Assembly (NCBI GenBank): GCA_036489315.1 | Contig: DASXFZ010000015.1 | Span: 1-53,028 of the forward strand | Length of the DNA: 53,028 bases | Origin: Candidatus Cybelea sp. | Lineage (GTDB): Bacteria > Vulcanimicrobiota > Vulcanimicrobiia > Vulcanimicrobiales > Vulcanimicrobiaceae | Reading direction: 5' to 3' | Shown: positions 21,444 through 30,997 of the stretch, in pieces | Layout: each line of letters opens with the position of its first letter | Numbering within the stretch: the stretch's first letter is position 1 | Notes under the pieces: generated by a model | Seen by the model: only the letters and a program-made list of their open reading frames with translations | Told to the model about the DNA's origin: nothing | Databases searched by the model: none | Made by a program: the position numbers and the translations under genes

Positions 21444-22124
21444 ATGCAGACTCCTATCGTTTGGATCACCGCTGCCAACGTGATTTATCTGGCGTCTTAC
21501 GCGGTGCGCGACATCCTCTGGCTGAGGCTCCTGACCGTGCTGGCGGCGTCACTGCTAATTCCATATTACGCGATGCAGAGCGCTCCGCTGCGGGTCGCAA
21601 TCGAGTGGAACGTCGTCTTTATCGCGATCAACTGCTATTGGATCGTCCGGCTGATCGTCGAGCGGCGACCGGTGCACTTCACCGCGGATGAAGCGCAGCT
21701 TCGGCAGCTTTCATTCCCATCGCTAACGCCTCGAGAGTCGCGCGATCTCTTCGCAATGGGTGTATGGGACGACCTCGCGCCGCATGATTCAATTGTGATA
21801 CACGATCGGGAAAAGGTGAGATTTTCGGTGATTCTGCGCGGCGCCACCGACGTGATCTATCGTGGCAAAAAGATCTCCGAGCTCGGAGCGGGCCAGTTCG
21901 TCGGCACTATCGATCTGCGGGCCGACACGCTGGCCGACATCGACGTCCTGACGCAAACGGCGACCCGAGTGATGTGCTGGCCCCGCAGTCCGTTGCAGAC
22001 GTTCCTCGCGCAGCGTCCGGATGTCGCGCTGGCGCTGGAGCGCAGCGTCGGCTTCGAGCTCCAGCGCATCCTCGGCACAACGCTGGCGAAGCTGGGCCTG
22101 TCCCCGACCGCAGGCACGTCATGA
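21444..22124 (+). CDS. Popeye-domain-like (POPDC) membrane cyclic-nucleotide-binding-fold protein
   Basis: 226 residues. The first ~75 residues hold three hydrophobic segments ending in YWIVRLIVERRPVHF, the junction seen in Popeye (POPDC) proteins (xxRLxxERRPV). The cytoplasmic part has the bacterial Popeye wording FPSLTPRESRDLFAMGVWDD and a cupin-like beta roll (VILRGATDVIYRGKKISELG). It ends with ATRVMCWPRSPLQTFLAQRP, the place of the CR.LxWxREKL..FL segment of POPDC1-3. The likely role is a membrane sensor of a nucleotide or small ligand. It sits upstream of the copper operon with a one-base gap to the next gene. Confidence 0.75.
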   Translation: MQTPIVWITAANVIYLASYAVRDILWLRLLTVLAASLLIPYYAMQSAPLRVAIEWNVVFIAINCYWIVRLIVERRPVHFTADEAQLRQLSFPSLTPRESRDLFAMGVWDDLAPHDSIVIHDREKVRFSVILRGATDVIYRGKKISELGAGQFVGTIDLRADTLADIDVLTQTATRVMCWPRSPLQTFLAQRPDVALALERSVGFELQRILGTTLAKLGLSPTAGTS

Positions 22125-23479: not shown

Positions 23480-24361
23480 ATGCATTTTCGAGCGAGCGCC
23501 GCGAGAACCGTCGCGATCGGAATTACGCTTATGGCCGCCTTATTTGTTTCGACGCCCGGTTGCGTTCGTGCAGCGGAAAACATCGCCGGCAAGGACATCA
23601 TCTTCAACGGCACGGTTCCAATGAACGCCTACCTGCACGAGACTCCCGGGCCAAGTGGCACGACGCATATCGACATGTGGGAAGTCCACAACGGGCGCGT
23701 AGTCACAGCCTACGATATCGATATGACGAAGATCATGCACATGATCGTCGTCTCGGACGACCTCGTCGACTTCCGGCACGTACACCCGGTCTTGCAATCG
23801 AACGGTCACCTCGACATCGACCTCAACCTGCCCCAGAGGCAGGGCGGCTACCACATCTATATCGATGGGTTGCCGCACGGCATCGGGCGACAGGTCTTTC
23901 GTTTCGACCTTCCCTCGGGGAGCAGTGTGGCGCCGGCGCGGCACCTGCACCCGCCCGGCGGAACCGTCGTCGTCGGCCCATACACGGTAACGATCGACCC
24001 GACAGCGGTCCCGATCGGGGAGATTTCCACCGTTTCCGTACGCATCCTCAAGAACGGCCGGCCGGCGAGAGATCTTCATCCGTACCTCGGCGTGATGGCT
24101 CACGGTGTTTTTATCGGCGTCAAGGATCTCGCCTACATGCACGCCCACGGCATGAGCGAGGCCATGCTGAATTCGGCCAATTCGAACGATTGCGGCGACA
24201 GTATGATGATGGCGATGACGCCGATGCCGCCCGGCCTCAACATCGGCAACGAGTTCGAATTTCAGATTCTCGCACCGAGCGCTCAGCCTTACGATTTTTG
24301 GCTGCAGTTCGTCGGTGGAAAGACGGTCTACACGGCTCCCTTCTTGGTGACGACCATCTAA
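23480..24361 (+). CDS. Exported His/Met-rich protein, YtkA-like metal-associated domain
   Basis: 293 residues; GGGAGG lies just upstream of the ATG. Sec signal to about residue 31 (LMAALFVSTPGCVRA, AEN). Features: KIMHMIVVSDDLVDFRHVHP near residues 88-107, then LPQRQGGYHIYIDGLPHG. This is the 'DLxHxHP ... GxYxxYxD' pattern of YtkA/FixH-like domains often linked to metal efflux or copper delivery. A C-terminal stretch is rich in Met/His (AYMHAHGMSEAML, DSMMMAMTPMPP), fitting Cu(I) binding. Predicted role: periplasmic copper carrier or sensor for the operon. It ends in TAATG, overlapping the next gene by 1 bp. Confidence 0.8.
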   Translation: MHFRASAARTVAIGITLMAALFVSTPGCVRAAENIAGKDIIFNGTVPMNAYLHETPGPSGTTHIDMWEVHNGRVVTAYDIDMTKIMHMIVVSDDLVDFRHVHPVLQSNGHLDIDLNLPQRQGGYHIYIDGLPHGIGRQVFRFDLPSGSSVAPARHLHPPGGTVVVGPYTVTIDPTAVPIGEISTVSVRILKNGRPARDLHPYLGVMAHGVFIGVKDLAYMHAHGMSEAMLNSANSNDCGDSMMMAMTPMPPGLNIGNEFEFQILAPSAQPYDFWLQFVGGKTVYTAPFLVTTI

Positions 24362-24855
24362 TGCGCGCAGTTGCAACGTCAACGTGTGCTTTGCTTCTGG
24401 CGTTCGGCGCGGCTTCAATTGGCGCGATGGGACACGTGCGCGTGTTCCCTGACTCCAATAATACGCAGACGCCCGCTTGCAGCTATGCGAAGTTCGTCGT
24501 TCGCGTTCCCGTCGAGAGAAACGTGCCGACGAATCGAATCGACCTAGCGATTCCGAAGGGCGTGGTCGTCTTTGCCGTCCAACCGAAGGCCGGCTGGCAG
24601 TTCACACTCCAGAAAACGCGAGGAATTATCACCGGCATCTCTTGGAGCGGGGGGCGTCTCATGCCCGAAGAGTTCGATGAGTTTGCCTTTATCGCGGCGA
24701 CGCCGAAGACGCCTGGGCCAATCAGTTGGGACGCCAGCCAATACTATGAAAATGGCGAGATCGTTCGCTGGACCGGAGCGCCCAAGAGCGACACGCCCCA
24801 TTCCGTCACAACCGTAGTGCCCGGGAAATGCTCCACGAGAAAGAAGGTGAAATGA
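24361..24855 (+). CDS. DUF1775/YcnI-like periplasmic copper-binding protein
   Basis: 164 residues from the ATG at 24361 (TAATG overlap with the previous gene). The signal peptide MRAVATSTCALLLAFGAASI ends at AMG and would expose the mature N-terminus HVRVFPD. YcnI/CopI proteins bind Cu(II) through this N-terminal His (histidine brace). The family wording continues with YAKFVVRVPVERNVPTN, VQPKAGWQF and ISWSGGRLMPEEFDEFAF, ending with WTGAPKSDTPHSVTTVVPG. The C-terminal tail is basic and no membrane anchor follows. Role: periplasmic copper buffering or delivery. Confidence 0.88.
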   Translation: MRAVATSTCALLLAFGAASIGAMGHVRVFPDSNNTQTPACSYAKFVVRVPVERNVPTNRIDLAIPKGVVVFAVQPKAGWQFTLQKTRGIITGISWSGGRLMPEEFDEFAFIAATPKTPGPISWDASQYYENGEIVRWTGAPKSDTPHSVTTVVPGKCSTRKKVK

Positions 24856-25961
24856 AATTGGCGCATCCGGCCGCGGGAGCCGCCGCGCCTTCGCCCCCCC
24901 GCGATTTGCGCGCGCAGCGTGCCGCAGCCCCTATTCTGCTCGATTGGCTGGTGACGCTGGCAGCGGTCTGGATCATGACGGGCCTCTTCATCGATGCTCA
25001 CCAGCACCTTTTCATGGCCGTAGAGTCATTTCTCAATCCGTGGCACATGACCATGTACACGGGTGCGGTCTTTGCCGCCGCGGTGTTGGGCGTGGCAATC
25101 GCCGCCAACTATCGCCATGCCGGCTCGTTTTGGAAGGCCGTCCCCCACGGCTACGCGCAGAGCGTGGTCGGTGTCGCGGCGCTGCTCGTCGGCGGCGCGC
25201 TGGACGCCGTCTGGCACTCGATCTTCGGTTTTGAGCACCAGCTCGATCTGCTGCTCAGCCCCCCCCACCTGTTCTTGCTCACCGGCCTCTTTTTCCTGAT
25301 TACCGGCCCGGTCCGCAGTGCGCTCGCCCGTCCCGACCCATCGAATCTGCTCGAGCAACTGCCGATGCTCGTCGCGCTCGGGCTCGCCTTTGAGATCGCG
25401 CAGTTCCTGACGCAGTATGGCTTTTATCCCGAAGCCCTGATGCGTGACCACCCATTGTCGCAAACGGCCTATCACAGCGAACAGTTCATTCTATCCGTCT
25501 TCCTCTTTTACAGGCAAGCGCTGGAGATCTCAATTATAATTTGGCAGAGCGTGCTGCTTGCCGCGGCGGTCTTGTACCTATGCGTTCGCAAGCGGCTGCA
25601 CTTCGGCGCGCTCATAATACTCTGCATCGTCGAAAAGCTTTGGATCGGCGGTGAGCTTTCGAGCGATTTCAAAGAGCTTCTGCTGGTCGTGCTTGCGTCG
25701 GCTGCAGCAGGGCTCGTGGGGGACATTGTCGTGGCGAAGTTACGACCCTCGTCGGAGCGTCCTAACGCGTTCCGGCTCCTGGGATTCGTCGTGCCGTCGA
25801 CCTACTTTGCGGCGTATTTTGCCTTCGCGGTTCCCCTGTTTGGGGGAACGTGGTGGGATGCGAGCTTCGTCTTCGGGTCGATTGTCGAGGCGGGAATCGT
25901 CGGCCTCTGCGTCAGTCAGCTCATGCTCGCTGCGTCGCCAAATAACTCTGGTACCGCATGA
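24852..25961 (+). CDS. PmoC/AmoC-like multi-TM membrane protein A
   Basis: 369 residues from the ATG at 24852 (ATGA overlap with the DUF1775 gene; AAGAAGGTG upstream). About nine hydrophobic segments. The putative metal site is D48-x3-H52-x12-H65 (in FIDAHQHLF and FLNPWHMTMY), then D118-x3-H122-x5-E128 (in LDAVWHSIFGFE) and SPPH139. The spacing (+4, +13, +53, +4) matches the CuC/CuD ligands of PmoC by published residue numbers (156, 160, 173, 227, 231; +4, +13, +54, +4), with Asp for Asn227. The homology is inferred from this spacing; overall identity looks low. Its neighbours are copper proteins. It shares GFE..LLSPxHL and GPVRSxL with the paralogue at 26404. Confidence 0.68.
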   Translation: MKLAHPAAGAAAPSPPRDLRAQRAAAPILLDWLVTLAAVWIMTGLFIDAHQHLFMAVESFLNPWHMTMYTGAVFAAAVLGVAIAANYRHAGSFWKAVPHGYAQSVVGVAALLVGGALDAVWHSIFGFEHQLDLLLSPPHLFLLTGLFFLITGPVRSALARPDPSNLLEQLPMLVALGLAFEIAQFLTQYGFYPEALMRDHPLSQTAYHSEQFILSVFLFYRQALEISIIIWQSVLLAAAVLYLCVRKRLHFGALIILCIVEKLWIGGELSSDFKELLLVVLASAAAGLVGDIVVAKLRPSSERPNAFRLLGFVVPSTYFAAYFAFAVPLFGGTWWDASFVFGSIVEAGIVGLCVSQLMLAASPNNSGTA

Positions 25962-25965
25962 AGTG

Positions 25966-26409
25966 CTATCGAATGAGTATCGGCACGACGCGCTCGTCGG
26001 TATCGCCGCGCGTGTTGCGCGCGATAATGTGAAGCGTGTAGGCACGACGGTATTGCGGGATAATGTCCAGGACGTCTTGTGAGAAAACGAAGTCTCCAAA
26101 ACGGCGATGGTCGGCCGCGAAAGAGAACGACTCGGTGCGCACTTCGACACTCGCCACGTTGGTTGACGTCACGATTCGCCCCATCCATCGCCGGCCGGGT
26201 CGAATCGTCGTTTCGTTCATCCATACTGCTAGAATGTGCGGTGCCGCATCGGGTGGAAGCGCTTGCGGCGCCGGCCAGGGAGATGGCGCGTCGAGAACGC
26301 GATTTGCCGCGAGCATGCGCCCGGTGGTCTGCGAGCACGCGGGCGCAACGAGCACGGCGAGCATCGCTAGCAGGGATCGCGTGAAGTACGCGGGGTGCGT
26401 CTCATGCAT
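25966..26409 (-). CDS. Small lipoprotein on the opposite strand inside the copper operon
   Basis: 147 residues from the ATG at 26409: signal HPAYFTRSLLAMLAVLV with lipobox APAC, then a beta-rich domain (HILAVWMNETTIRPGRRW, VASVEVRTESFSFAADH, AYTLHIIARNTRGDTDE). The wording is protein-like and not a shadow: the complementary plus strand has no usable frame of this quality. It converges within 4 bp of the first PmoC-like gene, and its start codon faces the start of the second PmoC-like gene almost base to base. The domain looks like an Ig-like/bacterial surface fold; function is unknown. An antisense position inside an otherwise co-directional operon is odd. Confidence 0.68.
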   Translation of the reverse strand: MHETHPAYFTRSLLAMLAVLVAPACSQTTGRMLAANRVLDAPSPWPAPQALPPDAAPHILAVWMNETTIRPGRRWMGRIVTSTNVASVEVRTESFSFAADHRRFGDFVFSQDVLDIIPQYRRAYTLHIIARNTRGDTDERVVPILIR

Positions 26410-27465
26410 CGCGTAGTCGCTTTCGACGCGGCATCGCATCCCGCTGCAAATATCTCATACGATTGGGCAATGACCGTTGCCTCGCTATGGCTCTCCGGCG
26501 GCATCATGATCGATGCGTGGTATCATTTTCACTCGACGGTAGAAACGTTTTTCGAGCCGGCGCATGCGCTGCTCTATTCCGGTTTGCTTACCAGCTACAT
26601 CTTTACCGCCGTCGCAGTCGCCGCAGGTCGCCGGCAGGGACACCCCTGGAAGGCTGCGCTGCCGAGGGGGTACGGCATTACCGCCGCCGGCTTGATCGTA
26701 TGCCTCGCCGGCGGTTTGGCCGATATGGCCAAACACGCGCTCTGGGGATTCGAGGAAGGGTTCAACGCTCTCTTGAGCCCGACGCATCTCCTGATCGGTG
26801 TCGGGATGCTCTTGATCATCGCCGGCCCGGTGCGCTCGGTGCTCGACCGGCCGAGTCCGCCTCGAACGTTGCTTGCGCAGCTGCCGCTGGTACTTTCCGC
26901 GGCATCGATGATGGAGCTGGTACACTGGGGAACGCAATTCGTCTTTTTAAGCGAGGCCGAAAAGATGAACGCGCCGATATCCCCAGTCAGCATACCACAC
27001 GAGACCCTTACGTTGCTCACGCTGCAGTACGATAAGGAGGGAATCGGTTTGCTGGCGGTCATCGTGCAAAGCCTGCTAACCGCCGGTTTCTTTCTCTATC
27101 TTGCGCGGCGCGTGCGGCTTGCGCCGGGCGCGATGGTCGTGCTCTTCCTTGCCGGGAATGCCTTCGTCGCGGCAGCTCATTCAAATTATATCGGGCAGTT
27201 CGTCGCGGTGATCGTCGCCTCGGCGATCGCGGGGTTCGTCGCCGATGGTTTCGGATTGGATCCTGCCGATCAGCTAAGCTCCCGCTGGGCAATCGCGGCA
27301 TTTATGGTTCCAGCAGTGTACTGGGCGGTGCTGCTCGCCGTGCTCGCACTCGCGATGGGCGGAATCTGGTGGACCCCGGACGTCATCTCCGGTTCCATTC
27401 TCTTCGCCGGTCTCGTCGGGCTTTTCGTGAATGCGTTGACCGGCCCGTTCGTCGCGCACCGATGA
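26404..27465 (+). CDS. PmoC/AmoC-like multi-TM membrane protein B
   Basis: 353 residues from the ATG at 26404 (CGGGG upstream; a GTG at 26395 would add three residues). A paralogue of the protein at 24852 with the same topology. Metal-site candidates are D37-x3-H41-x12-H54 (MIDAWYHFH and FFEPAHALLY), then D107-x3-H111-x5-E117 (LADMAKHALWGFE) and SPTH128; spacing is identical to protein A (+4, +13, +53, +4). Also shared are a GG-x2-D turn before the D-x3-H, GPVRSVL, and TQ-x-x-F. It overlaps the CopC-CopD gene by ATGA. Having two copies suggests a heteromeric complex or two sites. Confidence 0.68.
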   Translation: MHRVVAFDAASHPAANISYDWAMTVASLWLSGGIMIDAWYHFHSTVETFFEPAHALLYSGLLTSYIFTAVAVAAGRRQGHPWKAALPRGYGITAAGLIVCLAGGLADMAKHALWGFEEGFNALLSPTHLLIGVGMLLIIAGPVRSVLDRPSPPRTLLAQLPLVLSAASMMELVHWGTQFVFLSEAEKMNAPISPVSIPHETLTLLTLQYDKEGIGLLAVIVQSLLTAGFFLYLARRVRLAPGAMVVLFLAGNAFVAAAHSNYIGQFVAVIVASAIAGFVADGFGLDPADQLSSRWAIAAFMVPAVYWAVLLAVLALAMGGIWWTPDVISGSILFAGLVGLFVNALTGPFVAHR

Positions 27466-29507
27466 GCGTCATGGCGCTCCGGAGGGCCTGGTCGCGCTTG
27501 TTTTTGAAAGCACTATTCGCTTTTGCGTTGCTCTGGGCATTATCGCCGAGCGCGGCCGGAGCGCACGCCTACATCGTCGGCGCGCAGCCTCCGGCAGATA
27601 GCAGCTACCAGCAGCCGGCCGGGGCGATCGCGATATCCTTTGACGAGCCGGTCGAGCTGCTCGACTCAAATGCCATGCAAGTCTTTGACGGTCACGGAAA
27701 GCGTATCGACCGCCGCGACGCAGCCGTCGACCCGCAAGACGCAACGCGGGTAATCGTAAACCTGCCCCGGCGGCTCGACTCGGGTATCTACACGGTGCGC
27801 TGGCGCGTCATTTCAGCCGATACGCACGTCGTTCACGGCATCTATCGAATCGGCGTTGGCGTACCCGTGACGCAGGGTACTGTGCTGGAAGCCGCGTCGC
27901 CATTCGACCCATCCGCCGCGCCGGCGTCGGTACTGCGGTGGTTAAGCCTGATGGGCGCGCTGCTTGCAGGCGGAGCGATTTTCTTGCGGTGGTACTTGCT
28001 GGATCGGTTGGAACTTGCCTATCCCGGAGGCATCGCCACCGCTCGGCGCGGCGCGCTCGCAGGCGCACTCGTACTCTTGGCCGTCGCCATCCCAAGCCTG
28101 ATCGTCCAGGCGTCCGCCGCCGGCGGTGCCTTTGGGCAGGATATCGGAGCGACGCTGCTGCGAACGATTTGGGGCGTCGCGTTCCTGGTCCGCCTAGTTG
28201 CCGCCGTCGTCGTGCTCTTCGTCGCACTTTTCGCCTGGAAGCCGCTCAGCCGGATTGCGATCGTTTCGATCGTTATCTTGCTGGCCACCTTCAGCGCATC
28301 GGGTCATGCATTAGCTCAATCGAGCCTTAGCGCTCGCGCAATCGCCATGCTGGTAGACTTTGCGCATCTTGCCGCCGCCGCGGCGTGGATTGGCGGCCTC
28401 TTTATAATTGCTGCGATATTGTTGCCCCTTTGGCGGGCCCGCGACGTCAGAACGACGGAACGGACCCAAGCCCTTTTTGTGGCTTTTACTCCACTCGCAA
28501 TGGCGTGCGTCGCCATTATCGTCGTCAGCGGAGCGTATGCGTCGGTTATTCACCTTGGGCATATCGGCGATCTTGTAGGGTCCACCTACGGGCGCGTGCT
28601 TCTCATTAAAATTATCGTTGTGGCAGTTCTGTTGCTGCTAGGTTGGCGGCACTTTCGCATCGGGGCTGGAAGGAGCGCCGCGCCGGGTATCGCCACGCTG
28701 GGATACGAAACGCTCGCCGGCATCGTCGTTGCGCTGCTCACGGCGATCTTGGTCGGACAAATGCCGCCCGCGCACCTACCCGCATCGACCTCGTCGACCC
28801 CTTTGGAACTCGCCGGGGTTCTCTGCATCTTGGCGATCGTACGCTTCGCGTCGGCGAAAAAGGGCCGTACAATTGGGCCTTCAACCACGCCGGCAACTAG
28901 GTCTCTAGACCTCGCAATCATCGCGGGATCGGCCGCGCTTTTCTTAATCACGGTCGTGGTCGGTGGATACTCAGTAGAGTCGGCCTCGATGTGGCCGACG
29001 CTGCAGCTTAACGACATCGTGCTAGTCGACCGGCTAACCTATCGGCTGCGCTCCCCCCGGCACGACGACCTCGCGGTCTTCGTGCCGCCCGTGGAATCCG
29101 GCGGCAAGGACTTCGTAGAGCGTGTGGTCGGCGTTCCGGGCGACGAGATCGCAATCCGCGACGGGATCCTCTATCGAAACGGCAAGGCGCTTGACGAAGT
29201 GCCCGAGCAACAACCGGGTGCCTACGATTTAGCGATTCGGGACTACGAAATCTACATCGACGGTGACCCGCTCGACCCCCGCACGGCGGACGTACCGCCG
29301 AGGGCGCTCTGGCAGGCTCCGGACCGTATTCCAATGGGCTTCTATCTTTTGCTTGGGGACAACCGAAACTACTCGTACGACTCGCACATTTGGGGCTTCG
29401 CTCAGAGCGGCGGAGTGTTCGTGGCCGGACCACTGGCGACGCGAAACGTGCGCGCCGGCTTTGTGGGCATCTCTCGCGGCGTCATTTGGCCGCTGGGCAG
29501 ACTGTAA
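27462..29507 (+). CDS. CopC-CopD-signal peptidase I fusion protein
   Basis: 681 residues from the ATG at 27462 (ATGA overlap with the previous stop). Domain order: signal peptide to A34; CopC domain 35-140 with mature N-terminal His35 (HAYIVGAQPP) and the second ligand region DTHVVHGIYRIG (His122, His125); CopD eight-TM region about 150-470; then a type I signal peptidase domain from about 490 with its own TM. The peptidase has ESASMWPTL (Ser509), FVERVVGVPGDE and LLGDNRNYSYDSHIWG boxes. The general-base Lys that should precede RVVGVPGD is Glu553. CopC/CopD import or bind copper; the fused peptidase is unusual. The reading frame is continuous through both junctions. Confidence 0.85.
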   Translation: MSVMALRRAWSRLFLKALFAFALLWALSPSAAGAHAYIVGAQPPADSSYQQPAGAIAISFDEPVELLDSNAMQVFDGHGKRIDRRDAAVDPQDATRVIVNLPRRLDSGIYTVRWRVISADTHVVHGIYRIGVGVPVTQGTVLEAASPFDPSAAPASVLRWLSLMGALLAGGAIFLRWYLLDRLELAYPGGIATARRGALAGALVLLAVAIPSLIVQASAAGGAFGQDIGATLLRTIWGVAFLVRLVAAVVVLFVALFAWKPLSRIAIVSIVILLATFSASGHALAQSSLSARAIAMLVDFAHLAAAAAWIGGLFIIAAILLPLWRARDVRTTERTQALFVAFTPLAMACVAIIVVSGAYASVIHLGHIGDLVGSTYGRVLLIKIIVVAVLLLLGWRHFRIGAGRSAAPGIATLGYETLAGIVVALLTAILVGQMPPAHLPASTSSTPLELAGVLCILAIVRFASAKKGRTIGPSTTPATRSLDLAIIAGSAALFLITVVVGGYSVESASMWPTLQLNDIVLVDRLTYRLRSPRHDDLAVFVPPVESGGKDFVERVVGVPGDEIAIRDGILYRNGKALDEVPEQQPGAYDLAIRDYEIYIDGDPLDPRTADVPPRALWQAPDRIPMGFYLLLGDNRNYSYDSHIWGFAQSGGVFVAGPLATRNVRAGFVGISRGVIWPLGRL

Positions 29508-29557: not shown

Positions 29558-30997
29558 ATGATACGAAAGGCATTCTTGAAAAGCGGGATGAGTGCGATGG
29601 CGGCGGCCGCGATCCTTCCAAGGACGCACCAGGCGCTCGCAAGCGAGGTAATTAGTTACACGCTGACGTCGGCGCCCTTGAAATTCTCGCCGTCGCCCGG
29701 ACTTGCATTCGCCGGCTTGGCTTACAACGGGTCGATCCCCGGACCGGTATTACGAGCCGCCTACGGGCAGCGCGTGCGCATTCGCTACGTCAGTCGAGTC
29801 GCTATACCGACGAGCGTGCATTGGCACGGTATGATTCTTCCAAACGCCATGGACGGCGTTGCCTCAGTGACGCAGCCGCCAGTCCTCGAAAATGGCGAAT
29901 TCCTGTACGAGTTTACCGCAGGTCCCCCCGGAACGCGCTGGTATCACGATCACGCCTTTCACATGGGGCTTTCACGCGGGCTTTTCGGTATGTTCGTCGT
30001 CGACGATCCCAGCGATGAGCCGGCTGACAGGGAGTTCGCGCTTGTTTTTCACGACGTTCCGCAGTGGAGCACGGTCGACGCCGCCGAGCGTGGTATCAGC
30101 GGCGTTCCAATGACGATGCTGCCGGGTTCACCGGAGGCGCTAGCAATGACGGCGATGCGTTCCTCTCATAAGATGGGAGATGAGGTGGCGTACGCGGCAC
30201 ACTGTATCGACGGCGCCACGTATCCGCGAACGCGCAGACTCGCCGTCAGGCTCGGCGACCGCGTTCGGCTGCGCATCCTCAATGCGAGTCCGACCGAGAC
30301 ACGCTACGTTAGCCTCGCCGGGCATCGCTTCACGGTTACCCACAGCGACGGGAATCGCCTTGAGTCACCGATTGCGGTCGACGCCCTGCGAATCGGCGTC
30401 GGCGAACGCTACGACGCCTACTTCGAAGTGAGAAAGCCCGGTGCGTTCTTGCTTCAGGGCCTCACGGGGGGGCCGGCCCCGCACCAACAGGCGGCACTCT
30501 TTTACACCGAAGGGATGGAAAACGCACAGCCGGCGGAGAGTCCGCAGACGCTAGTCGGCGTCGATTATTTCACCTACGAAAAGGCGGCGGGCGGGGCGGC
30601 CGCCCCGTCGGCCGAAACGCTTGGATCGTTGCGATACGAGTTCACGCTTGGGGGCGGCGCGTGGGGCAGCAATCGCTGGACGATCAACGGGGCGACATGG
30701 CCCGATACGCCAAAAATTCTCGTACGACGCGGCGACCGCGTCTCGGTGCACTTCAAAAATACCACCGATATGGAGCATCCGATGCACCTGCACGGCCATG
30801 CGTTCGAGCTCGTCGAGGTAGGTGGAACGTGGCTTGCACGGCCGCTTTCGAAAGATGTCTCCATCGTACCGGCTAATGGGGGGACGACGACGTGGCGATT
30901 CACCGCAAACTCGCTGTCCGGACGCTGGCTGCTGCACTGCCATAACGAGATACATGCGATGGACGGGATGATGACCGAGGTGAGATATGAATCCTGA
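29558..30997 (+). CDS. Multicopper oxidase (laccase/CopA-like)
   Basis: 479 residues with a signal peptide (GMSAMAAAAILPRTHQALA) and three cupredoxin domains. All four copper motifs are present: HWHG at 88-91, WYHDH at 128-132, HPMHLHGH beginning near 407, and HCHNEIHAMDGM at 460-471. The Cys461 / His-x3-His / Met471 arrangement is that of a type 1 site with an axial Met. It should oxidise a periplasmic substrate (Cu(I), phenolics or an electron donor) with O2. It lies 50 bp downstream of the CopC-CopD fusion gene and its end overlaps the 36-residue TM gene, so it belongs to the same transcript. Confidence 0.92.
   Translation: MIRKAFLKSGMSAMAAAAILPRTHQALASEVISYTLTSAPLKFSPSPGLAFAGLAYNGSIPGPVLRAAYGQRVRIRYVSRVAIPTSVHWHGMILPNAMDGVASVTQPPVLENGEFLYEFTAGPPGTRWYHDHAFHMGLSRGLFGMFVVDDPSDEPADREFALVFHDVPQWSTVDAAERGISGVPMTMLPGSPEALAMTAMRSSHKMGDEVAYAAHCIDGATYPRTRRLAVRLGDRVRLRILNASPTETRYVSLAGHRFTVTHSDGNRLESPIAVDALRIGVGERYDAYFEVRKPGAFLLQGLTGGPAPHQQAALFYTEGMENAQPAESPQTLVGVDYFTYEKAAGGAAAPSAETLGSLRYEFTLGGGAWGSNRWTINGATWPDTPKILVRRGDRVSVHFKNTTDMEHPMHLHGHAFELVEVGGTWLARPLSKDVSIVPANGGTTTWRFTANSLSGRWLLHCHNEIHAMDGMMTEVRYES

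What the first reader, a model, noticed from the sequence alone, without database searches (positions are those of the whole stretch)
27462..29507. CopC-CopD fused to a type I signal peptidase domain
The gene reads through as one frame from a CopC domain, via CopD membrane helices, to a complete set of SPase I boxes. A single polypeptide that binds or imports copper and carries a leader peptidase-like domain would link copper uptake to processing of exported copper enzymes, such as the neighbouring multicopper oxidase. I know of no described protein with this order.
Basis: partly seen in the sequence, partly recalled or inferred. Interest (0 to 1): 0.7.

Follow-up and report, generated by a model that had tools for sequence, protein, structure and literature searches.

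The report
Copper importer fused to dead peptidase
This bacterial gene joins a copper-uptake protein to a signal peptidase whose cutting lysine has been lost but which is otherwise well preserved, so it probably grips rather than cuts its partner, a combination we did not find described.

Summary
The single-frame fusion at 27462-29507 is real. Pfam finds CopC, CopD and Peptidase_S26, all over cut-off. Full-length relatives occur in 2 other genomes of the genus (52% identity) and in no others of 149 searched in the phylum, so it is no assembly artefact.

The "complete set of SPase I boxes" is wrong. The box D general-base Lys is Glu in the window and Gln in both relatives; 82 of 82 unfused S26 domains examined keep Lys. 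The nucleophile Ser is kept. Three Lys-bearing SPases lie elsewhere in the genome.

The domain is not decaying: G007-G008 dN/dS is 0.12-0.16, no higher than CopC. Neighbours are copper genes, including DUF1775.

Best reading: a YcnJ-like CopC-CopD copper importer whose third domain is a non-cleaving signal-peptidase module, probably for binding a partner, like streptococcal SipA. Lys loss and selection are shown; copper import and binding are inferred. A role in processing the multicopper oxidase is not supported: that gene is absent from the other two loci.

The parts
27462..29507 (+). CopC-CopD-(Lys-less S26) fusion gene, 681 aa
   Evidence: full-length relatives in G007 and G008
27462..27563 (+). 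signal peptide (residues 1-34), ending AGA|H
   Evidence: sequence: A32-G33-A34 before H35; hydrophobic segment 13-32; cleavage site inferred
27564..27848 (+). CopC domain, residues 35-129; H35 (predicted mature N-terminus), D120 and H122 invariant in the three fusions
   Evidence: Pfam PF04234; alignment A1
27924..28781 (+). CopD membrane region, about residues 155-440
   Evidence: Pfam PF05425 at 341-430; NCBIfam copper_CopD 156-395, 84 bits, below its 195-bit equivalog cut-off; hydropathy
28782..29504 (+). whole SPase I-like module (two membrane helices plus extracytoplasmic domain), residues 441-681
   Evidence: unfused S26 proteins align from about residue 443 onward; Pfam PF10502 at 484-648
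28986..28988 (+). S509, box B nucleophile serine, retained
   Evidence: Ser in 85 of 85 rows
28977..28979 (+). E506 in place of the box B Pro
   Evidence: Pro in 54 of 54 copy-1/2 proteins, changed in 3 of 3 fusions
29118..29120 (+). E553 (GAG) in place of the box D general-base Lys
   Evidence: Lys in 82 of 82 unfused rows, absent in 3 of 3 fusions
24361..24855 (+). DUF1775 (YcnI-type) protein, no C-terminal membrane helix
   Evidence: Pfam PF07987, 66 bits; 61-66% identical next to the other two fusions; hydropathy
23480..24361 (+). His-rich exported protein; relative in G008 weakly YtkA-like
   Evidence: 38-40% identical copies next to the other two fusions; YtkA E 0.029, below cut-off
24828..25961 (+). 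multi-helix membrane protein TM1, no Pfam family
   Evidence: 76-78% identical copies in both other loci
26395..27465 (+). multi-helix membrane protein TM2, no Pfam family; its stop overlaps the fusion start
   Evidence: 73% identical copies in both other loci
29558..30997 (+). multicopper oxidase; not found near the other two fusions
   Evidence: Pfam Cu-oxidase domains; no hit in L035 or L036

Best explanation
The gene encodes a YcnJ-like copper-acquisition protein. An exported CopC domain takes Cu(II) with an N-terminal His brace (H35, D120, H122). A CopD membrane domain passes it on across, or into, the membrane. The C-terminus is a complete signal-peptidase module, both membrane anchors and the extracytoplasmic domain, captured from the lineage's own SPase gene. 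That module has lost its general base (Lys to Glu/Gln) and most likely can no longer act as a Ser-Lys peptidase. It is kept by selection as a non-cleaving, membrane-proximal binding or docking module, in the way proposed for streptococcal SipA. It sits where YcnJ carries its YtkA domain. Shown by sequence: the fusion, its recurrence, the Lys loss, the purifying selection and the copper gene context. Inferred: copper import, lack of activity, binding role and partner.
For: Three domains over curated cut-offs in all three fusions. Lys lost in 3 of 3 fusions and kept in 82 of 82 unfused rows, Ser kept in 85 of 85. The A1 alignment has no invariant Lys in the S26 module, so no shared substitute base. 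40 of 58 near-invariant S26 columns kept in all three. NG86 dN/dS between G007 and G008: CopC 0.161, CopD 0.254, S26 483-681 0.161, S26 503-660 0.115. DUF1775 beside all three fusions; PCuAC and SCO1 genes near G007, SCO1 near G008. YcnJ is CopC-CopD-YtkA and exchanges Cu(II) with YcnI (PMC12362106 passages; PMC13344008 passages). SipA: SPase fold and peptide cleft kept, Ser and Lys gone, essential for pilus assembly (PMC4049620).
Against: No experiment. Ser is retained, so a residual or unusual activity is not formally excluded. The box B Pro and a Tyr two residues before it are also lost in all three, so even signal-peptide binding may be altered. SipA itself showed no detectable peptide or pilin binding in vitro. 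The AlphaFold model failed (mean pLDDT 33.7), so the cleft could not be inspected. Most dS values exceed 1, so dN/dS is rough.
Confidence: 0.6

Rival explanations
1. The domain is an active leader peptidase that processes copper proteins or the CopC leader in cis, with another residue serving as base.
For: Ser509, box C/E residues and the overall domain are retained. CopC needs a leader-peptidase cut exactly before H35 (sequence). The S26 family includes a metal-enzyme maturation protease, TIGR02754, to which the fusions match weakly below cut-off (20-33 bits against 63.25).
Against: Lys replaced by Glu/Gln in 3 of 3 and no invariant Lys in the module. Lys is described as the general base of SPase I (PMC4049620 section 8 read). 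Three intact SPases elsewhere in the genome. S638, matching the Ser that stabilises the Lys, is Ala in G007. MCO not conserved next to the fusion.
Confidence: 0.1
2. The S26 module is an evolutionary passenger: a read-through fusion whose SPase part is degenerating and only serves as a tail.
For: Catalytic Lys lost; long branches of the fusions in the S26 tree; S26 TM1-linker evolves fast (dN/dS 0.53 for G007-G008); the window's module is closer to unfused copy 1 (61%) than to the other fusions (52-54%).
Against: Catalytic-domain dN/dS 0.115 and 76% identity between G007 and G008, more constrained than CopD; 40 of 58 near-invariant columns kept in all three; no stops in any of three.
Confidence: 0.17
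3. The module is mainly a folding, dimerisation or topology element that stabilises CopD, with no partner binding.
For: Both SPase membrane helices came with the domain and give a topology that would place it outside (hydropathy; inference).
Against: Constraint is concentrated in the extracytoplasmic domain rather than in the first added helix and linker.
Confidence: 0.12

Closest known systems
Bacillus subtilis YcnJ (CopC-CopD-YtkA) with YcnI (DUF1775)
   Same: CopC fused to CopD, a third extracytoplasmic C-terminal domain, and a DUF1775 gene alongside (PMC12362106, PMC13344008 passages)
   Different: Third domain is a Lys-less S26 signal peptidase, not YtkA; DUF1775 protein has no C-terminal membrane helix here
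Streptococcus pyogenes SipA, signal peptidase-like pilus assembly protein
   Same: SPase I family domain without a working Ser-Lys dyad, retained for a non-peptidase role (PMC4049620)
   Different: SipA lost both Ser and Lys and serves pilus assembly; here only Lys is lost, Ser kept, and the domain is fused to a copper protein
Type I signal peptidase (LepB/SpsB, MEROPS S26A)
   Same: PF10502 and TIGR02227 over cut-off; boxes B, C, E largely kept; two N-terminal helices
   Different: General-base Lys of box D is Glu/Gln; box B Pro lost
Nickel superoxide dismutase maturation protease (TIGR02754)
   Same: S26-type domain in a metal-protein context (name; function recalled)
   Different: Only 20-33 bits against a 63.25 cut-off; not a member

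Membership tests
Type I signal peptidase (S26A), active | S26 domain over curated cut-off | tested here: met
   PF10502 107.4 bits; TIGR02227 97.5 bits against 47
Type I signal peptidase (S26A), active | nucleophile Ser in box B | tested here: met
   S509; Ser in 85 of 85 rows
Type I signal peptidase (S26A), active | general-base Lys in box D | tested here: not met
   E, Q, Q in the three fusions; K in 82 of 82 others
Type I signal peptidase (S26A), active | cleaves signal peptides | not testable with these tools
   needs an assay
YcnJ-type CopC-CopD fusion | CopC domain with N-terminal His, Asp and His copper ligands | tested here: met
   PF04234 hit; H35, D120, H122 invariant in three fusions; ligand roles taken by analogy
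YcnJ-type CopC-CopD fusion | CopD membrane domain in the same chain | tested here: met
   PF05425 44.3 bits against 32.1
YcnJ-type CopC-CopD fusion | C-terminal YtkA domain | tested here: not met
   Pfam scan shows S26 and no YtkA
YcnJ-type CopC-CopD fusion | DUF1775 (YcnI) gene in the same cluster | tested here: met
SipA-type pseudo signal peptidase | S26 fold with broken Ser-Lys dyad | tested here: met
   Lys lost though Ser kept; fold by sequence only
SipA-type pseudo signal peptidase | both Ser and Lys replaced; pilus operon context | tested here: not met
   Ser kept; copper gene context

The most novel reading that the evidence does not exclude
Both copper proteins of this cluster, CopC and DUF1775, would get their predicted copper-binding N-terminal His from a signal-peptidase cut (A-G-A|H in the window fusion, A-M-G|H or A-A|H in DUF1775). 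The Lys-less peptidase may therefore have been recruited as a reader of that cut site. It would bind, without cleaving, the freshly exposed His terminus or the leader of the soluble DUF1775 protein and hold it next to CopC and CopD for copper transfer, replacing the membrane anchor that B. subtilis YcnI needs. This would be a signal peptidase turned into a copper-chaperone dock.
Probability: 0.13. Interest if true: 0.78.

Novelty: new variant of a known kind. Interest (0 to 1): 0.5.

Why it matters
CopD-type importers are widespread but their mechanism is poorly understood, and natural fusions are used to infer partners (PMC13344008, passages). A third domain that is a conserved non-cleaving signal peptidase would point to peptide or leader binding as part of copper acquisition. 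It would also add an example of a bacterial SPase I pseudoenzyme to set beside SipA. The retained Ser with a swapped Lys makes the claim easy to test.

Tried and rejected
Assembly artefact: rejected, because two other genomes carry the same order at 52% identity.

Frame or start problem: the longer 712-aa GTG frame (27369) runs back into the preceding gene; the ATG at 27462 fits a signal peptide and the overlap with TM2.

Wider spread of the architecture: none found beyond the genus. The genome-contig scan with P0001 gave nothing. The scan with A1 gave the G008 contig again (L087, JASHOM010000056.1) and one ordinary 300-aa signal peptidase with Lys in a Fimbriimonadia MAG (L088). Viral contigs gave nothing. 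Plasmids: 216 of 72,556 records matched, none over 80% of the query. Phylum: 3 full-length fusions in 149 genomes. A 682-aa CopC-CopD protein in G094 has no S26 domain.

Structure prediction from a two-row alignment failed (mean pLDDT 33.7), so no fold search was run.

Single origin of the fusion: favoured but not firm. The S26 tree gives 90/95 support with 85 rows but only 72/76 with 30 rows, with long-branch warnings. The shared join and orthologous CopC-CopD halves support one origin.

One search printed the wrong column as 'K-col' (one place off because of a gap); one search has the corrected count.

Full report
Observation. The window is a whole contig (C15, 53,028 bases; contig length) of a genome of 3.09 Mb in 64 contigs. 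The frame 27462-29507 (+) encodes 681 residues, and its ATG overlaps the stop of the preceding gene. Pfam gives CopC at 35-129, CopD at 341-430 and Peptidase_S26 at 484-648, each over its cut-off.

The fusion is real. Of 148 genomes searched (the window's own included), G007 and G008, both of the same genus, match over residues 14-680 at 52% identity in one frame each. Searching 99 genomes of the family and 149 of the phylum, which overlap with the first set, found no fourth full-length match. G008's contig is also held as JASHOM010000056.1, a Candidatus Eremiobacterota MAG. The other genus members with CopC at good score (G002, G012, G014, G016) have it in frames of 129-139 residues, and their matches to the CopC-CopD part are at about 24-34% identity.

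The peptidase is not complete. I aligned 85 distinct S26 domains from the 38 loci held at that point. This is a subset of all S26 hits; duplicate rows were dropped. The box D Lys is K in 82 of 82 unfused rows, and E, Q and Q in the window, G007 and G008. The unfused copy 1 of G008, seen later, also has Lys. Ser is present in 85 of 85. The A1 alignment of the three fusions shows no invariant Lys in the module, so no common replacement. Of 58 columns at least 95% conserved in 54 copy-1/2 S26 proteins, 40 are kept in all three fusions, 13 are changed in some, and 5 are changed in all three: R479, Y504, P506, K553 and P586 (numbers are window positions, letters the unfused consensus). The residue matching E. 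coli Ser278, which PMC4049620 says stabilises the Lys (section 8 read), is Ala in G007 (correspondence by motif).

Origin and selection. Unfused S26 proteins align from about residue 443, including both membrane helices, so a whole SPase gene was joined to CopC-CopD. The tree places the fusions among copy-1 SPases of the family. Fusion monophyly has 90/95 support with 85 rows but only 72/76 with 30 rows, with long-branch warnings. The window's module is 61% identical to the genome's own copy 1 and 52-54% to the other fusions, which could mean faster change in the G007/G008 pair, gene conversion or two fusions. Shared derived residues L516, R524 and T526 and the shared join argue for one. Between G007 and G008, NG86 dN/dS is 0.161 for CopC, 0.254 for CopD, 0.161 for S26 483-681, 0.115 for S26 503-660 and 0.53 for the 42-residue TM1-linker. 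Comparisons of the window with G007 and G008 give 0.36 and 0.18 for S26 483-681. dS is mostly above 1, so these are rough, and the second method (YN00) failed for many pairs; but the extracytoplasmic S26 part is constrained.

Context. In the window, DUF1775 (24361-24855), a His-rich exported protein (23480-24361), two membrane proteins (24828-25961, 26395-27465) and a small exported protein (25966-26439, minus strand) surround the fusion. The first four have counterparts by both other fusions. The small protein has one in G008 (61%), and matches within SCO1-containing frames in G007 (coordinates compared). G007 also has PCuAC and four SCO1 proteins nearby, and G008 one SCO1. The multicopper oxidase is beside the window's copy only. 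B. subtilis YcnJ is CopC-CopD-YtkA; YcnJ and YcnI exchange Cu(II), and YcnJ supports respiration in copper shortage (PMC12362106 and PMC13344008, passages seen). YcnI there needs its C-terminal membrane helix. The window and G007 DUF1775 proteins have no such helix by hydropathy, and the G008 translation ends in a similar polar way by eye.

Mechanism. Steps taken from sequence: export and cleavage before H35 (inferred from A-G-A|H), copper ligands H35, D120 and H122 by analogy to CopC (ligand numbering recalled and from YcnJ passages), a CopD membrane domain, then SPase helices and an extracytoplasmic SPase-like domain without a general base. The simplest reading is a YcnJ-like importer with a non-cleaving SPase domain as binding module. 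SipA is the precedent: SPase fold and cleft kept, dyad lost, needed for pilus assembly, though its ligand was not found (PMC4049620 abstract, section 8 and part 1 of the discussion read). The partner here is unknown; DUF1775 is my best guess.

Novelty. Paper searches for signal peptidase with CopC and CopD (5 papers, none on such a fusion by title and abstract start), Eremiobacterota with signal peptidase and copper (1 paper) and CopD domain with signal peptidase or fusion terms (24 papers, 8 listed) showed no described protein of this order. The library is open-access papers only. I rate it a new variant of a known kind: a CopC-CopD fusion with a new, apparently non-catalytic third domain, found in 3 genomes.

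Noticed in passing
window 21444-22124 (+): Small membrane protein with a near-threshold Popeye (POPDC1-3, 26.3 bits against 28.1) match followed by a weak cyclic-nucleotide-binding match: a possible bacterial Popeye-type protein.
   Followed up: no
window 25966-26439 (-); L035 3260-3682 and 5383-5862: Small exported protein of the window has 41-59% identical stretches inside SCO1-containing frames in G007, suggesting a SCO1 fusion partner of unknown family.
   Followed up: partly
window 24828-25961 and 26395-27465 (+): Two related membrane proteins with no Pfam or NCBIfam family; 73-78% identical at the fusion loci, and TM2 has matches, mostly 34-40% identical, in 17 of 18 genus genomes.
   Followed up: partly
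G000 C22 125172-127159 (L037): Three canonical signal peptidase genes in tandem, all with box D Lys; the tandem pattern recurs across the family.
   Followed up: partly
L035 2278-6402 (G007): Run of four SCO1 proteins and a PCuAC copper chaperone beside the fusion.
   Followed up: no
window 23480-24361 (+): His-rich exported protein family found in 41 of 99 family genomes with only a sub-threshold YtkA match for its G008 relative.
   Followed up: partly
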